IMG/VR virus record: IMGVR_UViG_3300032268_001078
Span: 62,001-126,000 of that record
Reading direction: 5' to 3' (one strand)
Source of the DNA: a virus
DNA: 64,000 nucleotides
Shown here: positions 9,948 through 56,359 of the stretch, in pieces
Layout: every line of letters starts with the position of its first letter
Numbering within the stretch: the stretch's first letter is position 1
The notes under the pieces: model-generated
Seen by the model: the letters and a program-made list of their open reading frames with translations, nothing else
What the model was told of the DNA's origin: nothing
Databases searched by the model: none
Program-made: the position numbers and the translations under genes

Positions 9948-9957
9948 TAATAAATAT
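9948..9957 (-). promoter_or_regulatory. class B upstream motif (sense ATATTTATTA)
   Basis: Perfect decamer two bases before the 57-residue gene and overlapping the stop of the gene upstream. The spacing is very short for a promoter. Confidence 0.3.
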
Positions 9958-10460
9958 TAACGTTGTTTGTCGTTTTGGAATTGTCCGTTGTAAAGTTTGT
10001 CTTCTGTTACTGGAGTACAATCGTGGAAATACATTTGAGCTACTCTACTATTTTCTTCAATGAATATAGGATAATTTACAAACATATATGTTCCTACATT
10101 ATTTGTTTGAAATCCTGGATCAAAAATACTTGATTGGATTAATGCTCCATTTCTCATCAATGAACTTCTTTGACGAATTAAACCTACTCTATTTGGTGCT
10201 ATATTACAACCTTCATTCATGATTACATCATAAACTCCAGCATATAATAACCATCCAAAACGACCATCAATCATTTGTTTTTCTACTCCAACGTGTTGAT
10301 TTACTTCAGTTTTGTCTTTCAAAACTTTACCTACTCTTCCACCAACTTGATTGATTGCTTTAATTGATAAGTCAAAGCCTACTTGAGCTGGTTTACCATG
10401 TGAATTACTATCTAAAGTAATTAGACCTTCTTCTAATATTTGATCTGCGTTTAATATCAT
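9957..10460 (-). CDS. dCTP deaminase / dUTPase family protein
   Basis: 167 residues. Family signature VGLIRQRSSLMRNGALIQ, then SSIFDPGF, and a C-terminal YNGQFQND like the end of dCTP deaminases. These enzymes form trimers that deaminate dCTP and/or hydrolyse dUTP, feeding dUMP to thymidylate synthase (ThyX at 14588). The usual dCTP deaminase catalytic Glu after 'DPGxxG' is not obvious: the aligned segment reads VGTYMFVNYP. It could be a divergent enzyme or an inactive relative. Its start overlaps the GIY-YIG gene stop by ATGA. Confidence 0.75.
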   Translation of the reverse strand: MILNADQILEEGLITLDSNSHGKPAQVGFDLSIKAINQVGGRVGKVLKDKTEVNQHVGVEKQMIDGRFGWLLYAGVYDVIMNEGCNIAPNRVGLIRQRSSLMRNGALIQSSIFDPGFQTNNVGTYMFVNYPIFIEENSRVAQMYFHDCTPVTEDKLYNGQFQNDKQR

Positions 10461-11188
10461 ATTTCTTTATTTTTGTTTTTATAATAATTTTTATTTAGAT
10501 ATTTGTAATCACTTTTTTCATCTTTAAGTAATTTGAACATTTTAGTGATACCTATATTATTACTTAATCTACATTCTTTAACTGAGTTATAAGTAGTGTT
10601 AGTACTTATTTTTAAAACTTGGTTTCCTGTTTTTGGACCAGCTCCTAATTTTGGTATTCCTTTTCCACCAGCTCCTGGTTTTGGTTTTCCTTTTTGTTTT
10701 AAATCAGGTTTTCCTTTTCTTTTACTGGGGATTCCTGTTTTTACTATGCTTAGATTTTTACAATGTTCTTCAGTTTTTTTCTTTCCGGTTAATTTTTTAC
10801 TTACATTAGGTTTTTTAGAGTTTCTTTGAGCAATACTAGCCGCGTCTGAATGTGTTCCTGTTCTAGATTCAGTTATTTTTGATCCTCTATTTAAGTATTT
10901 TTCTGTTTTTGTAGGTCCATTAATACTTCCAAAACTTTTATTAGTTTTATTGTAAAACAAACCATTATTAGCCGCGTCGTAATACTCTAACCAATAAATT
11001 TCTCTTTCATTTAAATGTTTCAAATCGATACAATGTTCTAATATTTCTTTTTTAAAATTATGTTTACCAATTTTTTTTAAAGCTTTTTTAAACTCCGTAC
11101 CACCACCATAATAAGAAGAAATATTGTTTCTGTCTTTTCCTAGGTATTTCATACCATCAATCAAATTAGTTGTTATGTAAATAATCAT
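10457..11188 (-). CDS. GIY-YIG homing endonuclease with NUMOD-type modules
   Basis: 243 residues. The N-terminal GIY-YIG-like nuclease reads IYITTNLIDGMKYLGKD, with a conserved Glu in NEREIYWLEYYD. A Lys/Gly/Pro-rich linker follows, with NUMOD3-like SKKLTGKKKTEEHCKNLS and a C-terminal NUMOD1-like DNA-binding repeat (KISTNTTYNSVKECRLSNNI). Freestanding Seg-type mobile endonuclease of T4-like phages. It sits between folE and the dCTP deaminase-like gene, which are otherwise likely neighbours. Independent class B motif. Confidence 0.88.
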   Translation of the reverse strand: MIIYITTNLIDGMKYLGKDRNNISSYYGGGTEFKKALKKIGKHNFKKEILEHCIDLKHLNEREIYWLEYYDAANNGLFYNKTNKSFGSINGPTKTEKYLNRGSKITESRTGTHSDAASIAQRNSKKPNVSKKLTGKKKTEEHCKNLSIVKTGIPSKRKGKPDLKQKGKPKPGAGGKGIPKLGAGPKTGNQVLKISTNTTYNSVKECRLSNNIGITKMFKLLKDEKSDYKYLNKNYYKNKNKEI

Positions 11189-11192
11189 ACAT

Positions 11193-11202
11193 TAATAAAT
11201 AT
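11193..11202 (-). promoter_or_regulatory. class B upstream motif (sense ATATTTATTA)
   Basis: Four bases before the GIY-YIG gene start, in the 41-base gap after folE. Confidence 0.35.
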
Positions 11203-11229
11203 GAAACACCTAGTAGAGTGACAAAAATA

Positions 11230-11925
11230 TTAGTAAAGAAGTTTATGAGAAGAAGCCATGTCAATTGATTTAAAATATTCAGCTCTAACTTCTGCTTTAT
11301 CCATAAATACTCCTGTTAAGTGATTAGTAACCATTGCTGAACCTACATGATTTGTTCCTCTACAACTAACACATTGGTGTTCTCCAACAATAGTTACTGC
11401 TACCCCAATATTACCCTCACATACATTATCAACAGCATTGTGAATAGCCATTGTAAGTTGTTCTTGAATAGCACCTCTTCTCCCAAAATGCTCTACAAGA
11501 CGATTTAGTTTACTTAAACCAATTACTTTAGCATCTGGTCCAGGAATGTAAGCGATATGTACTCTTCCTAAAATAGTTTCATGATGATGTGAACACATTG
11601 ATGTTAATGGTATGTTTGTTTGAACTACCATTCCTTGGTATCCATCACTTGGAAAAGCAGTTATTGATGGAGGAGCATCATATCTTCCTCTCCATTGTTC
11701 AAAAACATACTTTTTCGCGATACGACGAGGAGTGTCACTACTATTAGGATCGTTTTCCCAATCACAACCTAATGCTGTCAAAAATTGACCATAAGCTTCT
11801 GCTGCTTTATCTACCATAGCCCATTTTTCTTTTTCAGTAAATGGAAAGCCGGGCGCTATTCCATTTGCATAACCTTGTTTTACTACTTCTAAATCAAGTG
11901 TAAAAGTTTTCTTATTATTTGTCAT
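11230..11925 (-). CDS. folE: GTP cyclohydrolase I
   Basis: 231 residues. It converts GTP to 7,8-dihydroneopterin triphosphate, the first step to preQ0. Zinc ligands are conserved in MCSHHHETI and EHQCVSCRG, with IGLSKLNRLVEHFGRR and QEQLT as in bacterial FolE. It overlaps the small membrane-protein gene by 11 bases and ends the transcript that starts at the thioredoxin gene. Together with QueD, QueE and QueC in the same block this points to 7-deazaguanine synthesis rather than folate synthesis. Confidence 0.95.
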   Translation of the reverse strand: MTNNKKTFTLDLEVVKQGYANGIAPGFPFTEKEKWAMVDKAAEAYGQFLTALGCDWENDPNSSDTPRRIAKKYVFEQWRGRYDAPPSITAFPSDGYQGMVVQTNIPLTSMCSHHHETILGRVHIAYIPGPDAKVIGLSKLNRLVEHFGRRGAIQEQLTMAIHNAVDNVCEGNIGVAVTIVGEHQCVSCRGTNHVGSAMVTNHLTGVFMDKAEVRAEYFKSIDMASSHKLLY

Positions 11926-12100
11926 TGTTTTTGATTTTTTTTTCTGTTTCTAAAATTCGTTTTGATGTTGTTGATGCTAAAGTAAATATTTGTATCCACA
12001 ATTTATCAATTTCTCTTCTTTGTTTATCTATAATATAACCAAAATAACATAAAATCCCAAAAATTACTGCTAAAATTATATATAAGATTGTTAATGTCAT
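11915..12100 (-). CDS. small single-pass membrane protein
   Basis: 61 residues: one hydrophobic segment at about 3-24 (LTILYIILAVIFGILCYFGY), then a charged helix (DKQRREIDKLWIQIF... ETEKKIKNN), probably cytoplasmic. It overlaps the thioesterase gene by ATGA and folE by 11 bases. Family not recognised; a spanin, holin or phage-specific membrane role cannot be told apart. Confidence 0.65.
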   Translation of the reverse strand: MTLTILYIILAVIFGILCYFGYIIDKQRREIDKLWIQIFTLASTTSKRILETEKKIKNNDK

Positions 12101-12498
12101 AATTTTTCTGGTGGTGTGTTAAATATTCTTTTTACTTGTTCTGATATTGAAATAGGCTGTCCTTCATTATCAACTCTAACAAAAGTCATCTTAGTGGCTA
12201 ATAATACAACTTCATCTGCTCTAAAAACATTGTATGCTCTTGCTTCTACTTTAAATGTAGCTGATGTATTTCCTATTTTAGATAATTCAGCATATATCTT
12301 AACTAGATTGTTTTCTTTAGCTGGTTTTTTAAATACACATTCATCAATAGCCATTGTGATCATATTTTGTGTTCGACATTTTTCCATAGCATAAGCAGCT
12401 ACAGCAGAGTCTAACCATGCTAAAAGTACTCCTCCAAATAAATTACCGTGGAAACCTAAGTCTGATTTTTTAACTGGGTGTGTTGATAGTAAATCCAT
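12097..12498 (-). CDS. hotdog-fold acyl-CoA thioesterase (YciA-like)
   Basis: 133 residues with the hotdog thioesterase signature GNLFGGVLLAWLDSAVAAYA, including the Asp used in catalysis, then VFKKPAKENNLVKIYAEL and VLLATKMTFVRVD, as in YciA/BFIT-like enzymes that hydrolyse acyl-CoA. Such a gene is unusual in a phage. Its start overlaps the queE stop and its end overlaps the membrane-protein gene, so it belongs to the trx-queE-folE transcript. The substrate cannot be predicted. Confidence 0.85.
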   Translation of the reverse strand: MDLLSTHPVKKSDLGFHGNLFGGVLLAWLDSAVAAYAMEKCRTQNMITMAIDECVFKKPAKENNLVKIYAELSKIGNTSATFKVEARAYNVFRADEVVLLATKMTFVRVDNEGQPISISEQVKRIFNTPPEKL

Positions 12499-13292
12499 TA
12501 AACTGCTCTTTTAGTATCGTATGATATAATATGATCTCTACCAGTCCAATTGTATCCCATTTCAAATGCTTTTTCTAAACTAATTGGATACTGTTTAATC
12601 AATTCTTCTCTGTTATCACCAGCTGGCATTAACCATGTTTTATTTTTAGGAATGTTGTGTTTTATTCTAAACTCTTCAATTTCTTGAATATTTTCTTCTG
12701 TTCCGTCGTAAACTGGTTTGTAATGATAATCTGAATGGTAAGCTAGAGTTTTACTAATTGCGTCATGATTTAAACGTAATTTGTTATGTTGGTCAATCAT
12801 CTTTTGATCAACGAGTTTACCCATTGGTGTAGTGACGTCAATTTTAGGTACAGAGTTACTAAACTTAGGGCTAAGAGATACCAACCCAAATGGATAATCT
12901 GTTTCAATAAAATGGCTGCCTTCTGTTTCAATAGTTATAAATATACCTCTTTCGTTAGCAAAGTGAGTTAATTCATTACAAAGATCAGGTTGCATTGTTG
13001 GTGAACCACCCGTTAACATCATTTCAGTAATTGTTGGATTTTCATCATAAATTTTGATGATATCATTAAATGTGTAAGTTCCTTTACCTGGATGAATACT
13101 TGTGTACCAAGAATCACACCAGCCTCCAGCACCAAACCAACAACGATGTGTACATCCAGTTGTTCTAATAGCTACTGTTGGTCTACCTTGTCTTGAACCC
13201 TCACTTTGAATACAAGTGTAGAGTTCAAGAATTGGTAAAGTTTTATTATAATCAGTAATTCTACCTGGTTTTTTAATTTCTGTCATAAGCAT
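12498..13292 (-). CDS. queE: 7-carboxy-7-deazaguanine synthase (radical SAM)
   Basis: 264 residues. QueE turns 6-carboxytetrahydropterin into 7-carboxy-7-deazaguanine. Diagnostic parts: IQSEGSRQGRPTVAIRTTGC, the SAM-binding MLTGGSPTMQ and ITIETEGSH. The Fe-S motif is odd: C-THR-C-WFGAGGW-C, a CX3CX7C spacing with an insertion before the third Cys instead of CX3CX2C. A second Met at 13286 is also possible. The start overlaps the thioredoxin gene by 20 bases, and the stop overlaps the thioesterase start. Confidence 0.9.
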   Translation of the reverse strand: MLMTEIKKPGRITDYNKTLPILELYTCIQSEGSRQGRPTVAIRTTGCTHRCWFGAGGWCDSWYTSIHPGKGTYTFNDIIKIYDENPTITEMMLTGGSPTMQPDLCNELTHFANERGIFITIETEGSHFIETDYPFGLVSLSPKFSNSVPKIDVTTPMGKLVDQKMIDQHNKLRLNHDAISKTLAYHSDYHYKPVYDGTEENIQEIEEFRIKHNIPKNKTWLMPAGDNREELIKQYPISLEKAFEMGYNWTGRDHIISYDTKRAV

Positions 13293-13515
13293 CTTGTAGT
13301 GTCTGTAATGTTGTTATTCCAACGTTTTTCCATACTTCTACTCCATCTTTTAACAAGATAGTTGTAGGTACAGCTTTTATTCCATATGATACCGCTGTAT
13401 CTATATCGATAGTTATATCTATTTTTTCAACAGGTACATTTAATGTACTGATTATTGGTCCGTAAGTCCTACAAGGTCCACATGTAGGAGATGTAAAATA
13501 TATAAATTTTTTCAT
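13273..13515 (-). CDS. thioredoxin-like protein
   Basis: 80 residues, shorter than bacterial thioredoxin (~105). Active site TSPTCGPCRTYGP with the classical CGPC, and the cis-Pro segment KAVPTTILLKDGVEV. A cytoplasmic disulfide reductase. It is a plausible reductant for the class II RNR (20637-22487), whose C-terminus carries a Cys pair. It is the first gene of the trx-queE-thioesterase-folE group and has a class A motif upstream. Confidence 0.88.
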   Translation of the reverse strand: MKKFIYFTSPTCGPCRTYGPIISTLNVPVEKIDITIDIDTAVSYGIKAVPTTILLKDGVEVWKNVGITTLQTLQDAYDRN

Positions 13516-13521
13516 TTTCTA

Positions 13522-13531
13522 TAATATAATT
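13522..13531 (-). promoter_or_regulatory. class A upstream motif (sense AATTATATTA)
   Basis: Six bases before the thioredoxin start, in the short gap after the GIY-YIG gene. Confidence 0.4.
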
Positions 13532-14096
13532 AATTTTGTTTAAATTTCCAAATAAAACCATATGCTGTTGGTTGTTTTCCTCTACAAACAGCCCCAACAC
13601 CATCACTATTAGGTTTTTTCATAAATACTTGTGCTTGAATTTGTGATTCAAATTCTCTAATAAAAGTTCCATTTAAATCATATTGTATGACTGGTGTTTG
13701 TGACCATGTATTTTTTCTTTCTTTTAAATGACTTCGTTTTAATTTTATTTTACTTTTATGTTCATCACTAAATAATTTTCCTTTATGAGATTTTGATTTA
13801 CCTTTAGTTTTTTTACTAATTTTTTGATTTCGTTCATTAGTGAATGTAATAGTAGTTGATCCTCCACCACCAAAATTTTTATTTTCTAAAATAAATCCCC
13901 AACTTCTATATAAAAATATATAATGACTTTCCCAAAATTTCCATTCATTTAATGATACTTCATCTATTATTTCAAATTGAATGTTTTTACCAAATTTTTT
14001 ACGATGATCTCCTTTTCTACCTTGAATAGAATTGGTTTTACCTATGTAAAATGGTATTTTATTTCCATTATGTAAATAGTAGATAAAGGTGTTCAT
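13530..14096 (-). CDS. GIY-YIG homing endonuclease with C-terminal NUMOD-like module
   Basis: 188 residues. N-terminal FIYYLHNGNKIPFYIGKT is the GIY-YIG core; Glu in WKFWESHYIFLY is the likely metal ligand. A basic linker (KISKKTKGKSKSHKGKL) leads to PVIQYDLNGTFIREFES with VCRGKQPTAYGFIWKF, the NUMOD-type DNA-recognition repeat. It is inserted two bases after queD, between queD and the thioredoxin gene, so it splits the modification cluster. Confidence 0.85.
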   Translation of the reverse strand: MNTFIYYLHNGNKIPFYIGKTNSIQGRKGDHRKKFGKNIQFEIIDEVSLNEWKFWESHYIFLYRSWGFILENKNFGGGGSTTITFTNERNQKISKKTKGKSKSHKGKLFSDEHKSKIKLKRSHLKERKNTWSQTPVIQYDLNGTFIREFESQIQAQVFMKKPNSDGVGAVCRGKQPTAYGFIWKFKQN

Positions 14097-14098
14097 AA

Positions 14099-14563
14099 TT
14101 ATCCTTTGTAAATTGCTGTATTTTTTTCGTGTTCTCTAAATTCAACTTGAGTTACTTTAACTCTACCTTCTGTTTCTAGTTGAACAAAATTATTTAGTTT
14201 ATTGTAAAAATATTCAGCAAAACGTTCTGCTCCTACTGATGGAATAATTCTTAATTGGATTATACCAGACTCGTGCATTTGCATAAATAGAGGTAAGTAA
14301 GGATCATCTTCAGCTACAATAGTTGTATGATCAAGCATATAATCCATCCATACTTTAGGATTCATACCATCAATAGTACCTTTAGCTCTTTTCATTCCTC
14401 CGAAGTCCCAAACCCAATTACGCTCATCAAGTTCACCTTCAAACCATACTCTAAAACTTACTGCATAACCATGCAAAAATTTACAGTGAGTATCTTCTGC
14501 TTTCCATTGTCTAAAACAAGCAGAATATCCATCAAATAACTTTGTTGATTTAAATGTTTTCAT
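14099..14563 (-). CDS. queD: 6-pyruvoyltetrahydropterin / 6-carboxytetrahydropterin synthase (QueD-like)
   Basis: 154 residues. It would convert dihydroneopterin triphosphate to 6-carboxytetrahydropterin, the QueE substrate. The catalytic Cys region reads THCKFLHGYAVSF and the C-terminal part VTQVEFREHEKNTA carries the family Glu. The usual zinc-ligand motif 'HGH' is HGY here, and the first ligand His (FxAxH) is replaced in YSACFRQW. I recall this variant from other phage QueD proteins, but metal binding must differ. Own class A motif. Confidence 0.85.
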   Translation of the reverse strand: MKTFKSTKLFDGYSACFRQWKAEDTHCKFLHGYAVSFRVWFEGELDERNWVWDFGGMKRAKGTIDGMNPKVWMDYMLDHTTIVAEDDPYLPLFMQMHESGIIQLRIIPSVGAERFAEYFYNKLNNFVQLETEGRVKVTQVEFREHEKNTAIYKG

Positions 14564-14568
14564 ATTAA

Positions 14569-14578
14569 TAATATAATA
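14569..14578 (-). promoter_or_regulatory. class A upstream motif (sense TATTATATTA)
   Basis: Perfect copy five bases before the queD start. Confidence 0.45.
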
Positions 14579-14587
14579 AAATTTATT

Positions 14588-15232
14588 TTAAAAACCAAAA
14601 GCTTTAATAGTATAATCAAAAGGATTTCCTTCAATGTTTTTAACTTGATCTAACATCATTTGTGCTAATTCTCTTACTTCAACTTGAGCGTGTTCACTGT
14701 TTCTTAACTGTTGAAAATGCGCAAAACTACGCCAGTTAAACATAATATCCATTGTTATTTGACTATTAAATGTCTTAAAAAACCTAGCTGATTCTTTCGC
14801 GCGTTTTCTACCTAGTATAGGAGTTAAATCTTTTAAACAATCATGATATAATTTATTAGCTCTTTTTGTATGAGTAGATAAAATATACAACCATTTATCT
14901 TCAACTTCTGTAGTTTTTATATCTTCCCAATCTTCAGGTAAATAAAAATTATCTTCTTTTAGCTCTTTATATCTAGCACTTTCACCATTAATACTAACTC
15001 CAATTCTGTGTTTTAGTAAATGAATATGAGTTGCTTGATCTACTGTAACTAAAAAATGTAAACTAGACTTTTCAAAAGGTGTGTGATGACCTTCTTTAGC
15101 TAACATCTCCAATAATTTAGGAACTCTATTTATTTTATCTTCATTTAAATCTCTAGATGTACTAGTCCATGCCGAACATGCATGAACTAAATCGTCTCCA
15201 TAATGTCCCAATAATTCTACTTTGTTTTTCAT
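14588..15232 (-). CDS. thyX: flavin-dependent thymidylate synthase
   Basis: 214 residues. It methylates dUMP with methylene-THF, FAD and NADPH. Recognised by GHHTPFEKSSLHF, the signature KHRIGVSINGESARYKEL and FQQLRNSEHAQVEVRELA. The classical motif RHRxxSxNxxSxRY appears with Lys for the first Arg and one extra residue after HR. It lies four bases after a small unknown gene in the nucleotide block and would use dUMP made by the dCTP deaminase-like enzyme. Confidence 0.93.
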   Translation of the reverse strand: MKNKVELLGHYGDDLVHACSAWTSTSRDLNEDKINRVPKLLEMLAKEGHHTPFEKSSLHFLVTVDQATHIHLLKHRIGVSINGESARYKELKEDNFYLPEDWEDIKTTEVEDKWLYILSTHTKRANKLYHDCLKDLTPILGRKRAKESARFFKTFNSQITMDIMFNWRSFAHFQQLRNSEHAQVEVRELAQMMLDQVKNIEGNPFDYTIKAFGF

Positions 15233-15236
15233 AATT

Positions 15237-15425
15237 TTAACCTTGTTTTGTTCCTAATGCCCAAACTGATTGTGGAAATAATTCTTTTCTCAGTTTTAAT
15301 ATAATGTCTCTTTTTTCTTGAAATTTATCCCCATAATAAGGATGATATCCATTTAAAACTTCTTTTGTTATTTCATAATCTAATTTAGCTATTAAAGCCA
15401 TTTTTTCTATTCTTTCTTTATCCAT
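15237..15425 (-). CDS. small hypothetical protein
   Basis: 62 residues from the ATG at 15425 (MDKERIEKMALIAKLDYEIT). A TTG at 15455 would add ten residues and overlap the GT2 gene, which is less likely. Mostly helical and charged, ending SVWALGTKQG. Family not recognised. It lies between the GT2 and thyX genes, with no own promoter visible. Confidence 0.6.
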   Translation of the reverse strand: MDKERIEKMALIAKLDYEITKEVLNGYHPYYGDKFQEKRDIILKLRKELFPQSVWALGTKQG

Positions 15426-15441
15426 TATTATAGTAATATCT

Positions 15442-16149
15442 TTAAAAATAACCAACGTCTTTATAAAAGTAATTAAGATTTTTTCTATTTTTATAGTTAT
15501 TTAATAATAATTTTATCATTTTTCCATAACCATATCTTTTAAATCTTCTATTATTTTGAGTAATTAAATCTGGTATTAATAAAAATCTTGATGGTTTTAC
15601 TTGACGACTTAAAAGCCAATCTTCAGATTGAGTTGCTTTTTCATCATATCCTCCTAGTTTTTTAAAAACATCTTTTTTAACTAATGTGAAACCACCAATA
15701 GCAAATGGTTGGGTTTTAGAAAGATACCAAGTTATTAATAAGTTTATACGAAATAATAGCCAAGCTCTAACATCAAATTCTCCTTTATACCATGGAGTAG
15801 TACCCACCATGTCAATTGGTCTATTATATATACTATCAAACGCTGTTTTGATTGACTGTCTATCTGTAAAAGTGATATCTGCATCTAAAAATAAGATATA
15901 AGGTGTTTTTACTAATTTAGCTCCTGCATTTCTTCCTATTGCTGGAAGTCCTCCATCTATTATTTTTAAATTTAAATCAAGTTCAAAAGCATAAGTATTA
16001 GCTAATACTCTAGTTCTATCTGTAGATTTAGCATCAGCAAGAATAATTAAAGTATTTCCAATATTTTGTTGTTTTAATTCTAAAAATAATTGTTTAATGT
16101 TTTCTTCTTCGTTTTTACAAGGAATAACAATAGTTAAGATTTTTTCCAT
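15442..16149 (-). CDS. family 2 glycosyltransferase
   Basis: 235 residues with the GT-A fold of GT2: LTIVIPCKNEEENIKQLF at the N-terminus, ADAKSTDRT, the metal-binding FLDADITF (DxD-type, about residue 93), and GGFTLVKKDVFKKLGGYDE with an acidic acceptor-site SEDWLLSRQ. It transfers a sugar from a nucleotide sugar to an unknown acceptor. A hydrophobic stretch (LLFRINLLITWYL) may contact membrane. It overlaps the phosphoesterase gene by 16 bases. The acceptor could be an envelope lipid/glycan or DNA; the sequence does not decide. Confidence 0.85.
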   Translation of the reverse strand: MEKILTIVIPCKNEEENIKQLFLELKQQNIGNTLIILADAKSTDRTRVLANTYAFELDLNLKIIDGGLPAIGRNAGAKLVKTPYILFLDADITFTDRQSIKTAFDSIYNRPIDMVGTTPWYKGEFDVRAWLLFRINLLITWYLSKTQPFAIGGFTLVKKDVFKKLGGYDEKATQSEDWLLSRQVKPSRFLLIPDLITQNNRRFKRYGYGKMIKLLLNNYKNRKNLNYFYKDVGYF

Positions 16150-16820
16150 AATTTTAAAGTATTATATTCTGAGTAGTATGTTATATGAGAACAATTTTCA
16201 ACCCAATCTCCACAATTCATATAACGAATACCATCAATCACTTTATCAGAAGGTGAATGAATATGACCACAAACTACTGTATGACAGTTTCTTTTTTTAG
16301 CTTGTCTTACCATTTCATTTTCAAAATCAACCATAAATGAAATAGCAGCTTTAATATTGTCTTTTAAAAACTTAGATAAACTTTTTTTCTTACCGAATTT
16401 TTTTAAGAATCTATCAATTACAATTGCAAGATCATACCCTAAAGATCCAAGCATACCAAGCCAATGCATTTGAACAATACCGTCGTACTTATCCCCATGA
16501 CAGAACCAGATTCCATCTTCTACATACTCATCTACAACTGTAATATTACCAATTTCTAAAGGTGTGTATTTTCTTAAAAATTCATCATGGTTTCCAGAAA
16601 TCCAAATAATTTGTTTGTCTTTTGAAAGTTTTAGAAATCTTCGAATAACTCTAGTTTGATTATAATCAAACTTTTTGTATTTTTTAAATAACCATCCGTC
16701 GATAATATCACCAACTAAAATGTATCTTTCATAACTTTCATCTTCAAGTAAACGTAGAACGTTTTCTGCTTGACATCCTTTTGATCCAACATGGATGTCT
16801 GATATTACTAGTGTTTTCAT
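16134..16820 (-). CDS. LpxH-like calcineurin-type metallophosphoesterase
   Basis: 228 residues. Metal-binding motifs are complete and in order: SDIHVGS (residue 7), GDIIDGW (~38), SGNHDEFL (~75), CHGDKYD (~110) and CGHIHSPSD (~182). Layout and length resemble UDP-2,3-diacylglucosamine pyrophosphatase (LpxH) of lipid A synthesis. It starts inside the HPRT stop (ATGA overlap) and runs into the GT2 gene. It may act on envelope lipid intermediates together with GT2, or on a nucleotide pyrophosphate; the family is broad. Confidence 0.8.
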   Translation of the reverse strand: MKTLVISDIHVGSKGCQAENVLRLLEDESYERYILVGDIIDGWLFKKYKKFDYNQTRVIRRFLKLSKDKQIIWISGNHDEFLRKYTPLEIGNITVVDEYVEDGIWFCHGDKYDGIVQMHWLGMLGSLGYDLAIVIDRFLKKFGKKKSLSKFLKDNIKAAISFMVDFENEMVRQAKKRNCHTVVCGHIHSPSDKVIDGIRYMNCGDWVENCSHITYYSEYNTLKLWKKS

Positions 16821-17326
16821 TTATAATAAATAGCTTTTAAATGTCGTGAACCACCATTTTCGTCGTCCATTCCATAACCAATATACCAAAAATCATTATT
16901 TTCTTTAGGAACACTCATAATACACATTTCTTCTCTGTATTTGTCATCATATTTTTTTAATGCAAAAATACCTTCAACACTTTTTGCTCCTTTGTACTCA
17001 TAGTGAATTTTTAAGTACTCATAAGTAATTCCACTGTCTAAAATATCATCAATAAGATAAACGTGTTTGTCTGTCACGTCTACCCTACTGTCTAACAACA
17101 TTTTAAATCCAGTGTTTTCTGTTCCTGTGTATGAAGCACAATTTACAAAATCACAAATAATATTCATACGTTGGAGTTCTTGCATCAAATCCGCGTAAAA
17201 CATAAAACCTCCACGCATTACTCCAATCATTACAATTGGTTCGTCTACGTTGTGTCTCATCATAATTTTCTCAACAATTTTGAGAACACCCATACGAATT
17301 TGATGTGGATTTAATAATACTTGCAT
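16817..17326 (-). CDS. hypoxanthine/guanine phosphoribosyltransferase
   Basis: 169 residues, the usual HPRT length. The pyrophosphate loop GVMRGGFMFYADLM (~38), the flexible-loop region SYTGTENTG and the PRPP motif VYLIDDILDSGITYEYL (~92) are intact. It converts guanine or hypoxanthine plus PRPP to GMP or IMP. Placed next to queC and near dpdA-like, it could salvage guanine released by base exchange in DNA (inference). Its ATG overlaps the stop of the 51-residue gene. Confidence 0.9.
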   Translation of the reverse strand: MQVLLNPHQIRMGVLKIVEKIMMRHNVDEPIVMIGVMRGGFMFYADLMQELQRMNIICDFVNCASYTGTENTGFKMLLDSRVDVTDKHVYLIDDILDSGITYEYLKIHYEYKGAKSVEGIFALKKYDDKYREEMCIMSVPKENNDFWYIGYGMDDENGGSRHLKAIYYK

Positions 17327-17481
17327 TATACTAGTTCCTCTACAATACCTACTAATTCTGATATGATTAAAATAATTGCTCCAAGGCTAATGCTCCAGAA
17401 TAAAGCAACATAGCCAGAGATTCTAACAGCTGATTTTAAAAAGCTGACTGACTGATGTAGTTTAGGATCTGGATGTTTCAT
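17326..17481 (-). CDS. small single-pass membrane protein (51 aa)
   Basis: An ATG at 17481 opens 51 codons ending in TAA at 17326-17328. The product reads MKHPDPKLHQSVSFLKSAVR, then a hydrophobic segment (about 21-42, VALFWSISLGAIILIISELV) and GIVEELV. It overlaps the queC end by 20 bases and shares a base with the HPRT start, exactly filling the only gap between them, which argues that it is real. Function unknown. Confidence 0.6.
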   Translation of the reverse strand: MKHPDPKLHQSVSFLKSAVRISGYVALFWSISLGAIILIISELVGIVEELV

Positions 17482-18334
17482 GTTTGTCTAAAACTTGTTT
17501 TACGTATTCTACAACATATTCCCAACTTACAGGACCAAATTCATCAGCATATTGAACTGGATCTTTACGACCTAATTTCAAAAATGCTTCTACTCTTTCT
17601 ACACTTGATGCTGATTTAAAATCACTAAACCATTCTTTTTCATAACAAACATTGTCTCCAACTGTATATTCAATACTATGTTGAATTGGTTTATAAGATG
17701 TGTTTGTTTTGCTGTAAACTTTATCAAAGTTCAAATGTAAAAAAGTGCAACATTCTTCTCCATCTTTTAAAATATCAAATTTATCTCCTAACAAATATGG
17801 AGTATAATATGCTACTTTTTCAGCACCCCAGTTACCCATTTTAAAAGCAAATTCATCTGCATCTCTAAATTCTTGTCTGCAATCTGGATAGATACTATGA
17901 TCACCTGCGTGGATGCCCATAGCAATTTCAACATTACAATTTTTAGATTCTGCAATTGATAAAGCTACTGCTTGAATAATTGAACTAAAGATTTTGTTTC
18001 TGTTTGGTACTACTGTTGCTTTCATATTTTCTTCAGCATAGTGACCTTCAGGAACTTCTGCTCCTCCTGTTACTAGAGCTGAATTGAGTAGTTGGCTTAG
18101 TCCATCTAATTTAATTACTTGATACTTAACTTTTGGATAATAATACTCATCTTCATAACGAGAATGTGCATTAACATATCTTACTAAAGCTTGAGCACGT
18201 TCAAGTTCAATTGAGTGTTTTTGCCCATAGTCAAAAGACAGTGCGGTTACTTCATAGCCCTTGGCGAGTAGATGAAGTAACAATGTGGAGCTGTCCATAC
18301 CTCCACTTAATGATAGTACTGCTTGTTTATTCAT
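17462..18334 (-). CDS. queC: 7-cyano-7-deazaguanine synthase (QueC-like)
   Basis: 290 residues, a little longer than typical QueC (~230). The PP-loop LSLSGGMDSSTLLLHLLAKG and FDYGQKHSIELERA are intact, as is the AMGIHAGDHSIYPDCRQEF block. It converts 7-carboxy-7-deazaguanine to preQ0 with ATP and ammonia. The C-terminal zinc site normally reads CGxCxxCxxR; here the aligned segment is FSDFKSASSVERVEAF, with no cysteines, although the VERVEAF and GRKDPVQYAD context is kept. It overlaps the upstream gene at the start codon. Confidence 0.88.
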   Translation of the reverse strand: MNKQAVLSLSGGMDSSTLLLHLLAKGYEVTALSFDYGQKHSIELERAQALVRYVNAHSRYEDEYYYPKVKYQVIKLDGLSQLLNSALVTGGAEVPEGHYAEENMKATVVPNRNKIFSSIIQAVALSIAESKNCNVEIAMGIHAGDHSIYPDCRQEFRDADEFAFKMGNWGAEKVAYYTPYLLGDKFDILKDGEECCTFLHLNFDKVYSKTNTSYKPIQHSIEYTVGDNVCYEKEWFSDFKSASSVERVEAFLKLGRKDPVQYADEFGPVSWEYVVEYVKQVLDKHETSRS

Positions 18335-18750
18335 TATAACTTTATTGTTCTTAGTGTTTTAATAATAATTTCTTCTGGTTCAAATTTACTTACTTCTGGG
18401 TCTTTACTTGCGGCATATTCAATACTTCCTTGGCTTAATGTTTCAACCCAAAATGTTTTGATCATTTTAGATCTAATGATTTTACCATCTTGATTTCTAG
18501 TCACTTTTATTACAGCAATTTCATGTTGCCATGAACTTCCAATCGTACTATCACCTAAATCATGAATTAATTGTCCCTTAATAATCATATTAGGTTCATA
18601 ACTTTGTGGATTGTAAATAGTATTAGTAAGTGTTCCCCAAGAAGTACCTGATGTTGATGTTAATATACCTGTAGCTGTAGCACTTGAGGGCAAAGTAGTG
18701 GATGTAGTAGTTGCTGTAGCACTTGATGGTATAGTAGAGGTTGTTGTCAT
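18334..18750 (-). CDS. hypothetical protein with Ser/Thr-rich repeat N-terminus
   Basis: 138 residues. The first ~40 are low complexity with a duplicated unit (TSTIPSSATATT, TSTTLPSSATAT), then a domain with MIIKGQLIHDLGDSTIGSSW and IAVIKVTRNQDGKIIRSKMI. I do not recognise it. Its stop overlaps the queC start (TAATG), so it is co-transcribed with queC. It may be a virion or accessory protein; nothing indicates catalysis. Confidence 0.7.
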   Translation of the reverse strand: MTTTSTIPSSATATTTSTTLPSSATATGILTSTSGTSWGTLTNTIYNPQSYEPNMIIKGQLIHDLGDSTIGSSWQHEIAVIKVTRNQDGKIIRSKMIKTFWVETLSQGSIEYAASKDPEVSKFEPEEIIIKTLRTIKL

Positions 18751-18763
18751 CTTATTTATTTTA

Positions 18764-19021
18764 TTAAATATATTCGTTACCGTTTTGTTTACTTAAAGCT
18801 GTAAAATAATGGTGTACAAGTTTTCCTTTATCTTCTGTTGGAATTGTTGTTGCCATAACTAAATGCATATTATCTTCAAAAGTTTCCATTTGGTCTTTAT
18901 TAGTATAATCAATGTTTTCTAAAAAACCAAATGCTAAATTTCTAGTAGACCCATCAGGAGACGACAACATACCAAGTATATTATCCCACATATCAGTATC
19001 AAATTTTAGTAATTCTTCCAT
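18764..19021 (-). CDS. hypothetical protein (85 aa)
   Basis: 85 residues from the Met at 19021 (MEELLKFDTDMWDNILGMLS). An upstream in-frame Met at 19057 lies within the terminator hairpin and is rejected. Mostly helical, acidic, ending SKQNGNEYI. Family unknown. It heads the transcript that continues through the Ser/Thr-rich gene into queC and HPRT. Confidence 0.65.
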   Translation of the reverse strand: MEELLKFDTDMWDNILGMLSSPDGSTRNLAFGFLENIDYTNKDQMETFEDNMHLVMATTIPTEDKGKLVHHYFTALSKQNGNEYI

Positions 19022-19035
19022 ATTGCTATTTATTA

Positions 19036-19045
19036 TAATATAAGA
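19036..19045 (-). promoter_or_regulatory. class A upstream motif (sense TCTTATATTA)
   Basis: Fourteen bases before the 85-residue gene and overlapping the T-run of the terminator at 19040-19069; probable start of the queC-HPRT-GT2-thyX transcript. Confidence 0.45.
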
Positions 19046-19069
19046 AAGGGTTGGCAAAATACCAACCCT
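19040..19069 (-). terminator. Rho-independent terminator after the DUF5679-like gene
   Basis: Sense stem AGGGTTGG / CCAACCCT with a 7-base loop, then TTCTTATATT. The T-run is short, so it may be leaky. Confidence 0.7.
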
Positions 19070-19092
19070 CTTAATAGATTTTTTAAAATAAA

Positions 19093-19290
19093 TTAAAAAT
19101 CTTGTTTTGCAATTCCAGCTTCGATAGCTGCTAATGCTTTAGCTTCAGACAAAATAGCTGTCATTTTGTTTCCTGCTGCGTTTGTTCCTTTAGCGATAAA
19201 ACCACCACGTGATGTTTTGCTAATTGTTACTTCTACGAAAGCTACTCCTTTTTGTTTTGCTTTCAAATCGTATGCTACTAGTTGTTCCAT
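19093..19290 (-). CDS. DUF5679-like small protein lacking the zinc cysteines
   Basis: 65 residues. The layout matches the small phage zinc-ribbon family DUF5679 (typically AYCxKCKxK ... KGxCPxCGxKM), but here it reads VAYDLKAKQK ... KGTNAAGNKM: every metal-binding Cys is replaced while the flanking residues remain. The match is my own recollection of the family pattern. It is last in the dpdA-like transcript, before a terminator. If correct it is a zinc-free relative of unknown role. Confidence 0.6.
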   Translation of the reverse strand: MEQLVAYDLKAKQKGVAFVEVTISKTSRGGFIAKGTNAAGNKMTAILSEAKALAAIEAGIAKQDF

Positions 19291-19293
19291 ATT

Positions 19294-19503
19294 CTATATT
19301 TCTGTTATTTGTTGTGTATTGTTAAAGTATGTTTCTAAAAAACTTTTAGGATAAAGTATTATTTTTCCTCTATAAACTGGATTAGATACTTCTCTTATTT
19401 TTGTTTGTACATTAAATTTTATTGCTTCGTTATTTACTTCTTTTCCTAATTCTCGTCCAGCGGCTTTTCCTAAAAAATCGTATAATGATAAATACTCGTC
19501 CAT
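19294..19503 (-). CDS. hypothetical protein (69 aa)
   Basis: 69 residues, MDEYLSLYDFLGKAAGRELG, then NVQTKIREVSNPVYRGKIIL and SFLETYFNN. Soluble, mixed alpha/beta. Its ATG overlaps the stop of the dpdA-like gene (position 19503), so it is translated with it. Family not recognised. Confidence 0.65.
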   Translation of the reverse strand: MDEYLSLYDFLGKAAGRELGKEVNNEAIKFNVQTKIREVSNPVYRGKIILYPKSFLETYFNNTQQITEI

Positions 19504-20279
19504 TATTGCATAAATTGTTTAAATGTTTCTATATTTTTTAAAGCTAAATCTAATTTTTCTTGATCTTGAGATTCAAATACATTTTCTACTTTAGTTTTAG
19601 GCTTAAAGTTGATTCCTAAGTGTTCTGTGTAATCAATCATTTCAAATCCTAATGTAACGGGATTTGAAGTATCACAAGATTTAATTTCAGGATAAAAAAC
19701 TGATGGATAGTGTTTGAATTCTGATGCAAAATTAGTTCCTAATAAATGATGATGAACTTTAGAACTCAATCTACCTGTAGCTTTTAAATAAGTAATAAAC
19801 TCTACTCTACCTAGTGTTTTTCTTGTTTCAAAGTGTTCGTGAGTTGAAAAATCATCATAAAACTGACCTAAATGATTAAAACCAATGTATTTTACTCCAT
19901 CTGCTACGAGTTTTTCATATAACTCTTCAGCTTCAAACATATTGTTTGCTTGTAATACAACCATAATTTTATCACTGTCGATTTTTGTTCTCCAGTGTTT
20001 ATAGTTTTCATATGTTTTATCTGCATCATTCCAAGCATCAGGAACAATAAATGCATTAGGTTTAATTTTTACATAAAGATCTATTAATGTTTTGTCGTCT
20101 TTCAAGTCATCTTCAAAAAGACCATTATCCATCATAATAAATCTGCCATTTTCTCTTGCTTTCAAAAAATGATTCATATAATCTTCATCGTGAGCAAACG
20201 ATGGTAAGAAATAATCAAAATCATTAAATTCAAAACTTTTTTCTAAAAGTGCTTTTGGGCATTCGTGACTAACTTTCAT
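19503..20279 (-). CDS. dpdA: DpdA-like DNA 7-deazaguanine transglycosylase (TGT superfamily)
   Basis: 258 residues. Phage DpdA proteins are TGT-like enzymes that swap guanine in DNA for preQ0 or a derivative. Consistent features: FIMMDNGLFEDD with the conserved Asp (~50), FIVPDAWNDADKT, the barrel strands KIMVVLQANN and GVKYIGFNHLG, HHLLGTNFASEF, and EIKSCDTSNPVTLG near the end. No tRNA-TGT zinc site is seen. The assignment is supported by FolE, QueD, QueE and QueC in the same block. Own class A motif and upstream terminator. A non-TGT barrel enzyme remains possible. Confidence 0.65.
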   Translation of the reverse strand: MKVSHECPKALLEKSFEFNDFDYFLPSFAHDEDYMNHFLKARENGRFIMMDNGLFEDDLKDDKTLIDLYVKIKPNAFIVPDAWNDADKTYENYKHWRTKIDSDKIMVVLQANNMFEAEELYEKLVADGVKYIGFNHLGQFYDDFSTHEHFETRKTLGRVEFITYLKATGRLSSKVHHHLLGTNFASEFKHYPSVFYPEIKSCDTSNPVTLGFEMIDYTEHLGINFKPKTKVENVFESQDQEKLDLALKNIETFKQFMQ

Positions 20280-20627: not shown

Positions 20628-20637
20628 TAATAAATAT
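20628..20637 (-). promoter_or_regulatory. class B upstream motif (sense ATATTTATTA)
   Basis: Twelve bases before the 93-residue gene; its outer end touches the RNR stop codon. Confidence 0.4.
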
Positions 20638-22487
20638 TATACAATTTCGCAAGCTCCACCAGCACACGCTGCTTGATCCATTAAGTTTGTCATATCACTC
20701 ATTTCTACTACATTTCTCAAATCAATATTATGTAAATGTTGTACCATTTCATTGTATTGTTCTTCTGTAATTGTTTCAAACGGAGTTTGTTTATAACTTC
20801 CTAAGTCTTCAGGTAAACAAGACATTGCTGTGTAGTCTTCTCTGTGTTTCCACATCCATTCACCTACTTGTTTCCACTCACCTGCTTTGATATTGATAGT
20901 AACAGATACGTTATTGAAATTTTGACCGCTTCTATGACCTGGTCTTACCCATTCCATATTAAATCTGCGAGTTCTTTCTAATAAATCAAATGTTGATTCT
21001 GCTCTTGTTGTAGCTCCTACTGGTGCTGCTTGAGGAACAGAAATAACTGCTTGTTGACTTGGATTAAAGAAATCGTCTTCAACTAGTTCTGGGTGATTAA
21101 TAGATAAATAAGTGTAAATAGCTTCATTTTTACCTACTCTAATTCTACGAATATAGAAATTGTCGTGCCAAGCGTGAATTCCACTTGAACTTCCTAATAC
21201 TAAACTTGAAGTTCCACTTGGTTTTACAGTGGTTGAACGAGCTGCTTTTCTAATTCCTAAAAGTTTTGCTACTCTTTCGTTTTCTTCTTTAACTACTTTA
21301 GCACCTTCTTCTAAGTTGATGTTATCTAATTTTCCAGATGCAATTCCTGTAATACCTACACCTACTAAAGCGTCTTTTTCAGTTGTTTTTTTCCAAATGT
21401 CTCTTAAGTAGTGGAAGTCTGTGTAACTAGCTTGTAAAGTTCCTAAGAATGAAGCTGCTTTTGAACGAGCATTGAAATCTGCTTGATCTACTACATCTGT
21501 AGCGTTGATTTCACACAAGTTACAGAATTGGTATGGTCTTAAAGCAATTTCAGCACAAGGGTTAGTACCATAGTCTTTATCATTACTGAATATAAATCCT
21601 GGTTCACCTGCATTTGATGCTTCAACTTTAGCCCACAATCCCATAAATTCGCTTTCTGTAATTTTATGGCGCAAGATTACTGCTGAGTTGTTAGCTCTTC
21701 CACGTTGAGGATTAGTTTCCCACCAGTTTCCAAATTTACAAGTTAACATATCTTCATCATCAAAATCAAACAATGAAATCAATGCTGCTCTTCTAATTCC
21801 TCCACTTAATACTGCGTCAGCTAAGTGACAAGCAATATCGTGACATTCTACAGATGTTAATTTATCTCCTGCTTTTTTACGATCAAGAATTTTTTGGACT
21901 TGAAATAATACTTCTTTTAATGGTTCTGGTCCTGGAGCTTTTCCTCCTGCAGTAACTAATTGTTCTCCTTTTGCTCTAATGTCTCTAAAGTCAAATTTTG
22001 GTCTAGCTCCACCTTTCAAATAAGCTTTCATTAAAACATGTACTGCATCAGCCCATCCTTCAATAGAGTCGTTGATAAGATAGCGTTTTTCGCGTGTTGG
22101 AATTGTTATTTCAGGTAGTTTATCGATATGATGGCCTTGTACACTAAATCCAACGCCACATCCACTAAGAAGCAAAAACATAATTTCACTAAAACTCTTC
22201 ATATTGTCAATAGGAAGGAAACTACAATTGAACATTCTAGCATTGTTAATGTCTGCTGGTTTTCCAGCAAACTGCAATGATCTCATTGATGGTAAAACTT
22301 TTTTGTTGTAAACCATTTTGTAAACTTCATTGATTTCATCAGCTAATTCTGGGAATTTAGCTAAATGCATTTCTTTATTTCTGTCCACGATTTCTTCCCA
22401 GGTTTCGCGGCGAGATTTTTCGGGGATATGGCGAGCATACTTCATGTATGTCGTGATATCCGACAATATATTTTGTGTTGTGTTCAT
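20637..22487 (-). CDS. nrdJ: class II (adenosylcobalamin-dependent) ribonucleotide reductase
   Basis: 616 residues. Reduces ribonucleotides to deoxyribonucleotides using adenosylcobalamin as radical source. Visible signatures: PSMRSLQFAG, the active-site Cys in ARMFNCSFLPID, LLSGCGVGFSVQ, DYGTNPCAEIALRPYQFCNL with the NPCAEI loop, and TVKPSGTSSLVLG. The C-terminus AACAGGACEIV has a Cys pair for re-reduction. Length and the absence of a neighbouring NrdB fit class II; the thioredoxin at 13273 is a candidate reductant. Oddly, it is preceded by a class B rather than class A motif. Confidence 0.9.
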   Translation of the reverse strand: MNTTQNILSDITTYMKYARHIPEKSRRETWEEIVDRNKEMHLAKFPELADEINEVYKMVYNKKVLPSMRSLQFAGKPADINNARMFNCSFLPIDNMKSFSEIMFLLLSGCGVGFSVQGHHIDKLPEITIPTREKRYLINDSIEGWADAVHVLMKAYLKGGARPKFDFRDIRAKGEQLVTAGGKAPGPEPLKEVLFQVQKILDRKKAGDKLTSVECHDIACHLADAVLSGGIRRAALISLFDFDDEDMLTCKFGNWWETNPQRGRANNSAVILRHKITESEFMGLWAKVEASNAGEPGFIFSNDKDYGTNPCAEIALRPYQFCNLCEINATDVVDQADFNARSKAASFLGTLQASYTDFHYLRDIWKKTTEKDALVGVGITGIASGKLDNINLEEGAKVVKEENERVAKLLGIRKAARSTTVKPSGTSSLVLGSSSGIHAWHDNFYIRRIRVGKNEAIYTYLSINHPELVEDDFFNPSQQAVISVPQAAPVGATTRAESTFDLLERTRRFNMEWVRPGHRSGQNFNNVSVTINIKAGEWKQVGEWMWKHREDYTAMSCLPEDLGSYKQTPFETITEEQYNEMVQHLHNIDLRNVVEMSDMTNLMDQAACAGGACEIV

Positions 22488-47007: not shown

Positions 47008-47013
47008 GGTTTA

Positions 47014-47023
47014 ATATAAATAT
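47014..47023 (-). promoter_or_regulatory. class B-like upstream motif (sense ATATTTATAT)
   Basis: Six bases before the 965-residue fibre gene, in the 19-base gap. Confidence 0.3.
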
Positions 47024-47026
47024 AAA

Positions 47027-51397: not shown

Positions 51398-51398
51398 T

Positions 51399-51470
51399 TT
51401 ATTTTACTGGTTGTGTTATATGACCTACTTGAATAATAGAATTATTTATTTTTATTAATGTTAATACCAT
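51399..51470 (-). CDS. possible 23-residue micro-ORF
   Basis: ATG at 51470, MVLTLIKINNSIIQVGHITQ, stop at 51399-51401. It fills the 88-base gap between two fibre-block genes and has the class B motif six bases upstream, as real genes here do. No homologue known to me; could equally be a leader region. Confidence 0.3.
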   Translation of the reverse strand: MVLTLIKINNSIIQVGHITQPVK

Positions 51471-51476
51471 AATATA

Positions 51477-51486
51477 TTATAAATAT
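51477..51486 (-). promoter_or_regulatory. class B upstream motif (sense ATATTTATAA)
   Basis: Six bases before the micro-ORF at 51470 and 79 bases before the giant fibre start; it touches the stop of the 689-residue gene. Confidence 0.35.
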
Positions 51487-56353: not shown

Positions 56354-56359
56354 TTCTTA

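What the first reader, a model, noticed from the sequence alone, without database searches (positions are those of the whole stretch)
11230..20279. Complete phage preQ0 pathway plus DpdA-like enzyme: probable 7-deazaguanine-modified genome
FolE (11230), QueE (12498), QueD (14099), QueC (17462) and a TGT-like DpdA homologue (19503) lie within 9 kb on one strand. FolE, QueD, QueE and QueC are the known four-step route GTP to preQ0, and phage DpdA proteins are known to put preQ0 derivatives into DNA and block host restriction. No tRNA QueF, QueA or tRNA-type Tgt is nearby, so a DNA target is more likely than queuosine. No amidotransferase or reductase that would convert preQ0 further is recognised, so preQ0 itself is the simplest product.
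Basis: partly seen in the sequence, partly recalled or inferred. Interest (0 to 1): 0.8.

Follow-up and report, generated by a model that had tools for sequence, protein, structure and literature searches.

The report
Phage cluster replacing guanine in DNA
A 180-kb T4-like phage from a metagenome carries all four genes for making a modified guanine (preQ0) plus an enzyme of a recently described type that exchanges it for guanine in phage DNA, so its genome is probably camouflaged against host DNA-cutting enzymes; this is a new and somewhat unusual example of a known strategy.

Summary
FolE, QueE, QueD, QueC and the DpdA-like ORF lie at the stated coordinates, all on the minus strand, in a tightly packed run of genes.

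The key doubt, whether 19503-20279 is a TGT/DpdA enzyme, is largely resolved. No Pfam or NCBIfam model recognises it. Its AlphaFold model (mean pLDDT 93) is a TIM barrel whose four best PDB matches are all TGT superfamily, including DNA preQ0 insertase DpdA (7ui4). Three aspartates, aligned to motif positions of CAjan-type DpdA, are invariant in 89 relatives.

By sequence it belongs with the Campylobacter CP220 and Flavobacterium immuto proteins. I take this to be the DpdA3 type (own knowledge). CP220 and CPt10 have 100% of dG replaced by dADG, so complete replacement is plausible here. QueC, QueD, QueE and FolE accompany this DpdA in dozens of viral contigs.

The whole record has no Tgt, QueF, formyltransferase or GATase_6. 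preQ0 is the favoured base, but ADG is a serious alternative.

New details: the QueC has no zinc cysteines; the QueD lacks two zinc histidines; an HGPRT and a 70-residue protein recur in such clusters. I suggest HGPRT recycles the guanine DpdA releases (inference).

New member of a known kind; the chemistry is untested.

The parts
19503..20279 (-). DpdA-type DNA guanine transglycosylase of the CP220/immuto (DpdA3-type) subfamily, 258 aa; putative catalytic Asp51, Asp81, Asp203
   Evidence: 32% full-length to immuto DpdA and CP220; AF2 pLDDT 93.3; PDB top four = arcTGT, DpdA 7ui4, TGT, TGT; D51/D81/D203 invariant in 89 relatives; hhalign to CAjan-type DpdA E 8e-5
19294..19503 (-). conserved small protein (69 aa) overlapping the dpdA stop by 1 base; candidate accessory factor, function unknown
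   Evidence: 59 of 84 DpdA3-type loci with room, 51 directly downstream of dpdA, 0 DpdA1-type loci; no Pfam/PHROG hit; AF2 pLDDT 86, no significant fold match
17462..18334 (-). QueC (7-cyano-7-deazaguanine synthase), variant without the four zinc cysteines
   Evidence: PF06508 E 7e-39; motif TNTSYKP...SASSVERVEAF replaces the C4 site in 71 of 74 QueC beside this DpdA type
16817..17326 (-). HGPRT-like phosphoribosyltransferase; proposed guanine salvage/recycling
   Evidence: PF00156 E 1e-15; best PDB match hypoxanthine PRT E 1e-19; a PRT in 29 of 44 full DpdA3-type clusters vs 6 of 40 DpdA1-type
14099..14563 (-). QueD (6-carboxytetrahydropterin synthase), phage variant with two of three Zn His replaced; Cys27, His31, Asp78-His79, Glu141 kept
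   Evidence: PF01242 E 3e-15; phrog_2389 E 9e-41; H33->Y in 58 of 61 relatives
12498..13292 (-). QueE radical-SAM 7-carboxy-7-deazaguanine synthase, cluster motif CX3CX7C
   Evidence: phrog_2076 E 9e-45; 67% to immuto QueE, 34% to CP220 QueE
11230..11925 (-). FolE, GTP cyclohydrolase I, Zn ligands Cys111/His114/Cys185 kept
   Evidence: PF01227 E 3e-42; 61% to immuto FolE
13273..13515 (-). thioredoxin-like protein within the cluster (probably serves the RNR)
   Evidence: PF00085 E 4e-10; recurrent in related loci
14588..15232 (-). ThyX thymidylate synthase, nucleotide supply, in the same gene run
   Evidence: PF02511 E 2e-31
20637..22487 (-). adenosylcobalamin-dependent ribonucleotide reductase, upstream neighbour conserved in the phage group
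   Evidence: TIGR02505 E 5e-83; in 48 of 91 related loci

Best explanation
The cluster makes a 7-deazaguanine base and exchanges it for guanine in the phage's own DNA, protecting the genome from host nucleases that read guanine. Steps: FolE turns GTP into dihydroneopterin triphosphate; QueD makes carboxytetrahydropterin; QueE makes CDG; QueC makes ADG and then preQ0; a DpdA of the CP220/immuto (DpdA3-type) subfamily removes guanine from replicated DNA and inserts the deazaguanine. Because relatives with this enzyme type (CP220, CPt10) have all dG replaced, I expect extensive and probably complete replacement. The favoured base is preQ0 (about 0.55), then ADG (about 0.3). Shown: gene identities, fold, conserved candidate catalytic residues, co-occurrence. 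Inferred: activity, DNA as substrate, extent, exact base. The HGPRT in the cluster probably salvages guanine released by the exchange (about 56,000 per genome copy) back towards GTP (inference, about 0.35).
For: Gene calls and families. Full-length similarity only to immuto 'DNA guanine transglycosylase' and Campylobacter phage proteins among 50,697 phage records. AF2 model pLDDT 93.3, (beta/alpha) barrel; PDB top hits 1iq8 arcTGT E 2e-6, 7ui4 DpdA 3.5e-6, TGT 5egr/6rkt about 2e-5. Profile alignment to CAjan/Iggy/Rosebush-type DpdA E 8e-5 with collinear motifs D-N/S-G-x-F, D-x3-D-x3-T-x2-N, H-x2-G, CDTS/CDSS. D51, N52, D81, H178, G181, E187, D203 invariant in 89 proteins. QueC within 4 kb in 60 of 66 loci, with QueD/QueE/FolE in synteny. 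No Tgt, QueF, formyltransferase or GATase_6 in the record. CP220 and CPt10 fully dADG-replaced (PMC8306585); FolE+QueD+QueE+QueC+DpdA suffices for dPreQ0 in CAjan and Rosebush (PMC6884629). A zinc-less QueC related to this one sits in a FolE-QueE-QueC-MsrB-QueD gene run of a marine euryarchaeon, consistent with a working preQ0 synthase.
Against: No sequence-profile match of this DpdA family to any TGT in PDB or Pfam; TM-scores to known TGTs are moderate (0.53-0.63). The QueD lacks two of three zinc ligands and the QueC all four zinc cysteines; no enzyme with these substitutions is known to me to have been assayed. CP220 has QueC and no recognised QueF or amidotransferase yet carries dADG, so the gene list does not fix the product. 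No experiment on this phage; host unknown.
Confidence: 0.8

Rival explanations
1. Same system, but the inserted base is ADG (7-amido-7-deazaguanine), because the phage QueC stops at or releases its amide intermediate, or an unrecognised enzyme hydrates preQ0.
For: CP220 and CPt10, the closest relatives with measured DNA, have 100% dADG (PMC8306585) and QueC but no annotated QueF or amidotransferase. ADG is the known QueC intermediate (own knowledge). The window's QueC is a variant without zinc cysteines.
Against: CP220's QueC keeps all four zinc cysteines, so zinc loss does not explain ADG. Zinc-less QueC occurs in a marine archaeal preQ0-type gene run and in Iggy, whose lineage is reported to carry dPreQ0 (own knowledge; paper not held).
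Confidence: 0.3
2. Exchange happens at the nucleotide level: this DpdA type swaps the base on dGMP or dGTP, kinases make the modified dNTP, and the polymerase inserts it, giving complete replacement during replication, as in Z-genome phages.
For: In CP220 the DpdA gene is flanked by an HD-phosphohydrolase/P-loop fusion and an AAA_28 nucleotide-kinase-like gene; CC_R7, immuto, phiST and MA9V-3 also have kinase-like genes beside or near it, and immuto and phiST have PRA-PH/MazG pyrophosphohydrolases. The window's own genome has an AAA_28 kinase. A dNTP route was proposed for the Campylobacter phages (cited in PMC6884629).
Against: The fold and motifs are those of polymer-acting TGT/DpdA enzymes. 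In the window and most relatives no kinase adjoins dpdA, and no MazG is in the record. As I recall, Cui et al. 2023 argue for post-replicative insertion.
Confidence: 0.12
3. The genes boost queuosine in host tRNA rather than modify phage DNA.
For: Phages with preQ0 genes but no dpdA have been suggested to do this (PMC6884629).
Against: This phage has a DpdA-type enzyme but no Tgt or QueF in 180 kb; this DpdA type was not found in 84,980 prokaryote genomes and occurs with phage preQ0 genes.
Confidence: 0.04
4. A degenerate or repurposed pathway: QueD and QueC have lost their metal sites and no longer make preQ0, the host supplying precursors.
For: Two of three QueD zinc His and all QueC zinc Cys are replaced.
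Against: The replacements are uniform and surrounded by strongly conserved motifs in 58 of 61 QueD and 71 of 74 QueC, with intact frames; a zinc-less QueC stands in an archaeal FolE/QueE/QueD gene run. This looks like selection for a variant enzyme, not decay.
Confidence: 0.05

Closest known systems
Campylobacter phage CP220/CPt10 (Firehammervirus) system, complete dG to dADG replacement
   Same: homologous DpdA-type protein (32%, full length), with QueC, QueD, QueE, FolE, a PRT and an AAA_28 kinase in a T4-like phage
   Different: genes scattered over the CP220 genome; CP220 QueC and QueD keep canonical zinc ligands; product of the window phage unmeasured
Flavobacterium phage immuto (Immutovirus) cluster
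   Same: homologous DpdA (annotated DNA guanine transglycosylase), QueC 66%, QueD 68%, QueE 67%, FolE 61% identical; same zinc-less QueC and variant QueD; PRT beside FolE
   Different: immuto also has QueF and a formyltransferase-like gene (probable further conversion to preQ1 derivatives), absent here
CAjan/Rosebush-type DpdA with FolE-QueD-QueE-QueC (dPreQ0, about 30% of G)
   Same: same four-gene preQ0 route plus a DpdA and no amidotransferase
   Different: DpdA is of another subfamily (no tblastn match; only profile and fold similarity); these phages are only partly modified
Cellulophaga phage phiST and Chryseobacterium phage MA9V-3
   Same: distant DpdA of the same fold class next to FolE, QueD, QueE
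   Different: no QueC in the region seen, so probably an earlier intermediate is inserted; much more divergent DpdA

Membership tests
TGT/DpdA superfamily | TIM-barrel TGT fold | tested here: met
   AF2 pLDDT 93.3; top four PDB matches are TGT/DpdA, E 2e-6 to 2e-5
TGT/DpdA superfamily | conserved catalytic aspartates in DSG- and D(C/S)-type motifs | tested here: met
   D51 (DN[GS]xFE), D81 (VPD), D203 (DTS) invariant in 89 proteins; collinear with CAjan-type motifs. Catalytic role inferred
canonical tRNA TGT | Pfam TGT match and C-terminal CXCX2C zinc site | tested here: not met
   no PF01702 match in the record; only two Cys, no CXCX2C (sequence)
DpdA1 (CAjan/9g type) | sequence membership in that subfamily | tested here: not met
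   tblastn of 50,697 phage records hits no CAjan/9g/Rosebush-type DpdA; only profile-level similarity
DpdA3-type (CP220-type) | homology to the CP220/CPt10 protein | tested here: met
   full-length 32% identity, E 8e-20 to 7e-21; common invariant residues
DpdA3-type (CP220-type) | membership as defined by the authors of the subfamily (Cui et al. 2023) | not tested
   paper not held; equated through CP220 from own knowledge
DpdA3-type (CP220-type) | complete replacement of dG in DNA | not testable with these tools
   needs nucleoside LC-MS
preQ0 biosynthesis pathway | FolE, QueD, QueE, QueC all present | tested here: met
preQ0 biosynthesis pathway | canonical metal sites of QueD (3 His) and QueC (4 Cys) | tested here: not met
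   QueD H16->Q/S and H33->Y; QueC 0 of 4 Cys
archaeosine-type (dG+) or dPreQ1 branch | Gat-QueC, QueF or QueF-L, ArcS | tested here: inconclusive
   no GATase_6 and no QueF beyond the FolE cross-hit in the record; ArcS not searched; record may be incomplete

The most novel reading that the evidence does not exclude
Phages with this DpdA type may run a closed guanine loop: DpdA releases one guanine for each of about 56,000 G residues, a cluster-encoded HGPRT returns it via GMP to GTP, and GTP feeds FolE to make the next deazaguanine, which makes complete replacement affordable. This would be run with variant QueC and QueD enzymes that have dropped their zinc sites.
Probability: 0.25. Interest if true: 0.65.

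Novelty: new member of a known kind. Interest (0 to 1): 0.42.

Why it matters
If true, many environmental phages have DNA poorly visible to restriction enzymes and possibly to standard library preparation. The zinc-free QueC, variant QueD, HGPRT partner and small dpdA-adjacent protein are concrete, testable leads on how a phage replaces every guanine.

Tried and rejected
(1) Zinc-less QueC explains ADG: rejected, because CP220 (dADG) has an intact zinc site and Iggy and an archaeal preQ0-type gene run have zinc-less QueC. (2) Hidden QueF, formyltransferase, class-II amidotransferase or YhhQ transporter elsewhere in the record: none; the QueF hit is FolE itself. (3) Kinase/phosphohydrolase neighbours as in CP220/phiST: not adjacent here; an AAA_28 kinase lies elsewhere in the record, no MazG. 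(4) HGPRT as exclusive to this DpdA type: rejected, also in 6 of 40 DpdA1-type loci and in loci with no DpdA in view. (5) Variant QueD as peculiar to this clade: rejected, also in Pseudomonas Iggy, Stenotrophomonas Moby and Cellulophaga phages. (6) Fold of the 69-aa protein: no significant PDB match. (7) Sequence-only search for solved relatives of DpdA: nothing. (8) Cellular homologues of this DpdA: none in GTDB genomes. (9) Cui 2023 and Olsen 2023 (NAR) could not be read. (10) phiST_66/MA9_46 genes beside dpdA as a possible decarboxylase: they are P-loop kinase-like, with no homologue here.
Full report
WHAT IS THERE. The window is positions 62001-126000 of a 179,715-base IMG/VR virus record. 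The phage is T4-like: gp23-type major head protein, contractile tail sheath and T4-type DNA polymerase. GC is 31% and no tRNA genes lie in the window. The five ORFs of the finding are at the stated coordinates, on the minus strand. FolE, QueD and QueC pass Pfam cut-offs; QueE is identified by its PHROG (E 9e-45) and by 67% identity to immuto QueE. Genes from 9957 to 20279 are packed with overlaps or short gaps, consistent with one or a few transcription units (inference). Transcription order is dpdA, 69-aa, 65-aa, 97-aa, 138-aa, queC, 51-aa, HGPRT, phosphoesterase, glycosyltransferase, 72-aa, thyX, queD, GIY-YIG-like, thioredoxin, queE, thioesterase, 61-aa, folE.

THE DpdA CALL. No Pfam or NCBIfam model recognises 19503-20279, and a 73-sequence profile finds no TGT in the PDB by sequence. 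tblastn against 50,697 phage records gives only immuto ('DNA guanine transglycosylase') and Campylobacter phages at about 23-32% identity. The AF2 model from the 73-sequence alignment has pLDDT 93.3. Foldseek ranks archaeosine TGT 1iq8 (E 2.1e-6), DNA preQ0 insertase DpdA 7ui4 (3.5e-6) and two bacterial TGT entries first; among viral models it finds annotated queuine transferases and nt-1. hhalign against CAjan/Iggy/Rosebush-type DpdA gives E 8.4e-5 with collinear motifs. D51, N52, D81, H178, G181, E187 and D203 are invariant in 89 family members, including CP220, immuto, phiST and MA9V-3. No zinc CXCX2C motif is present.

SUBFAMILY AND EXTENT. Its nearest measured relatives are CP220 and CPt10, in which 100% of dG is replaced by dADG (stated in PMC8306585; original work cited as reference 36 in PMC6884629). 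From my own knowledge this corresponds to DpdA3 of Cui et al. 2023; that paper is not held, so the equation was not tested directly. The window protein and nine metagenomic relatives form a supported clade inside the family.

GENOMIC ASSOCIATION. Of 66 loci with room, 60 have QueC within 4 kb of this DpdA on the same strand, and QueD, QueE and FolE follow in synteny. These phages share a backbone (DnaB, RNR and 5' exonuclease are also conserved), so synteny alone is not independent evidence. The association also holds in unrelated layouts such as immuto, CP220 and phiST.

PRODUCT. The record has no Tgt, no QueF except a cross-hit to FolE, no formyltransferase, no GATase_6 and no preQ0 transporter; ArcS was not searched for. 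FolE+QueD+QueE+QueC+DpdA gives dPreQ0 in CAjan and Rosebush (PMC6884629). CP220, however, has the same gene kinds and carries dADG. I lean to preQ0 (0.55) over ADG (0.3). The QueC of this clade lacks all four zinc cysteines (71 of 74 beside this DpdA type; 12 of 36 beside CAjan-type DpdA, an apparently separate loss). Its nearest cellular relatives are in marine euryarchaeal and Pirellulaceae assemblies; where the C-terminal region was read (L191, L192, L194) they are also zinc-less, and in L191 the gene stands in a FolE-QueE-QueC-MsrB-QueD run. This argues that zinc-less QueC is a working preQ0 synthase. The QueD variant (FRQ...HC...HGY) is shared with many phages including Iggy and Moby.

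PARTNERS. An HGPRT-like enzyme (best PDB match hypoxanthine PRT, E 1.2e-19) lies in the cluster. A PRT is found in 29 of 44 complete clusters of this DpdA type against 6 of 40 CAjan-type clusters (Fisher p about 2e-6, but the loci are related and the comparison set was drawn by QueD type). HGPRT is rare in phage isolates. Inference: base exchange frees about 56,000 guanines per genome copy at this GC, which HGPRT would return to the GTP pool that feeds FolE. A 69-aa protein overlapping the dpdA stop recurs in 59 of 84 loci with room, 51 directly downstream, and in none of the CAjan-type loci; its model has no significant fold match.

RIVALS. A nucleotide-pool route is not excluded: in CP220, CC_R7, immuto, phiST and MA9V-3 nucleotide-kinase-like genes, and in some HD, MazG or PRA-PH hydrolases, lie beside or near this DpdA, and the window phage has an AAA_28 kinase elsewhere. 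The polymer-acting fold argues against it.

VERDICT. Observation confirmed, interpretation supported with refinements. A new member of a known kind, with several untested and interesting details.

Noticed in passing
window 14099-14563 and relatives: Phage QueD variant with conserved FRQ and HGY in place of two zinc His; shared with Iggy, Moby and Cellulophaga phages. No functional test of this variant is known to me.
   Followed up: partly
L191 (also L192, L194): A marine euryarchaeal genome bin (L191) and Pirellulaceae bins (L192, L194) encode zinc-cysteine-free QueC related to the phage one; in L191 it stands in a FolE-QueE-QueC-MsrB-QueD gene run.
   Followed up: partly
L002 18868-21361, L003 7360-9341, L100 10905-13067, L102 19417-20684: This DpdA type beside nucleotide-kinase-like genes in CP220, CC_R7, phiST and MA9V-3, with an HD or MazG phosphohydrolase in CP220 and phiST, recalling Z-genome pool-editing gene sets.
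   Followed up: partly
window 10457-11188 and 13530-14096: Two GIY-YIG/NUMOD1-like ORFs (probable homing endonucleases, below Pfam cut-off) sit inside the cluster.
   Followed up: partly
window 12097-12498: A 4HBT hotdog thioesterase between queE and folE, also found in L015, L096 and L092; role unknown.
   Followed up: no
L100 (phiST) and L102 (MA9V-3): FolE, QueD, QueE and a DpdA of this fold class but no QueC in the stretch seen; an earlier intermediate may be the inserted base.
   Followed up: no
window 6743-9733: A 996-aa protein of head-domain-like SHAEG repeats (tail fibre or adhesin-like), with other large low-complexity-rich proteins at 44113-56356.
   Followed up: no
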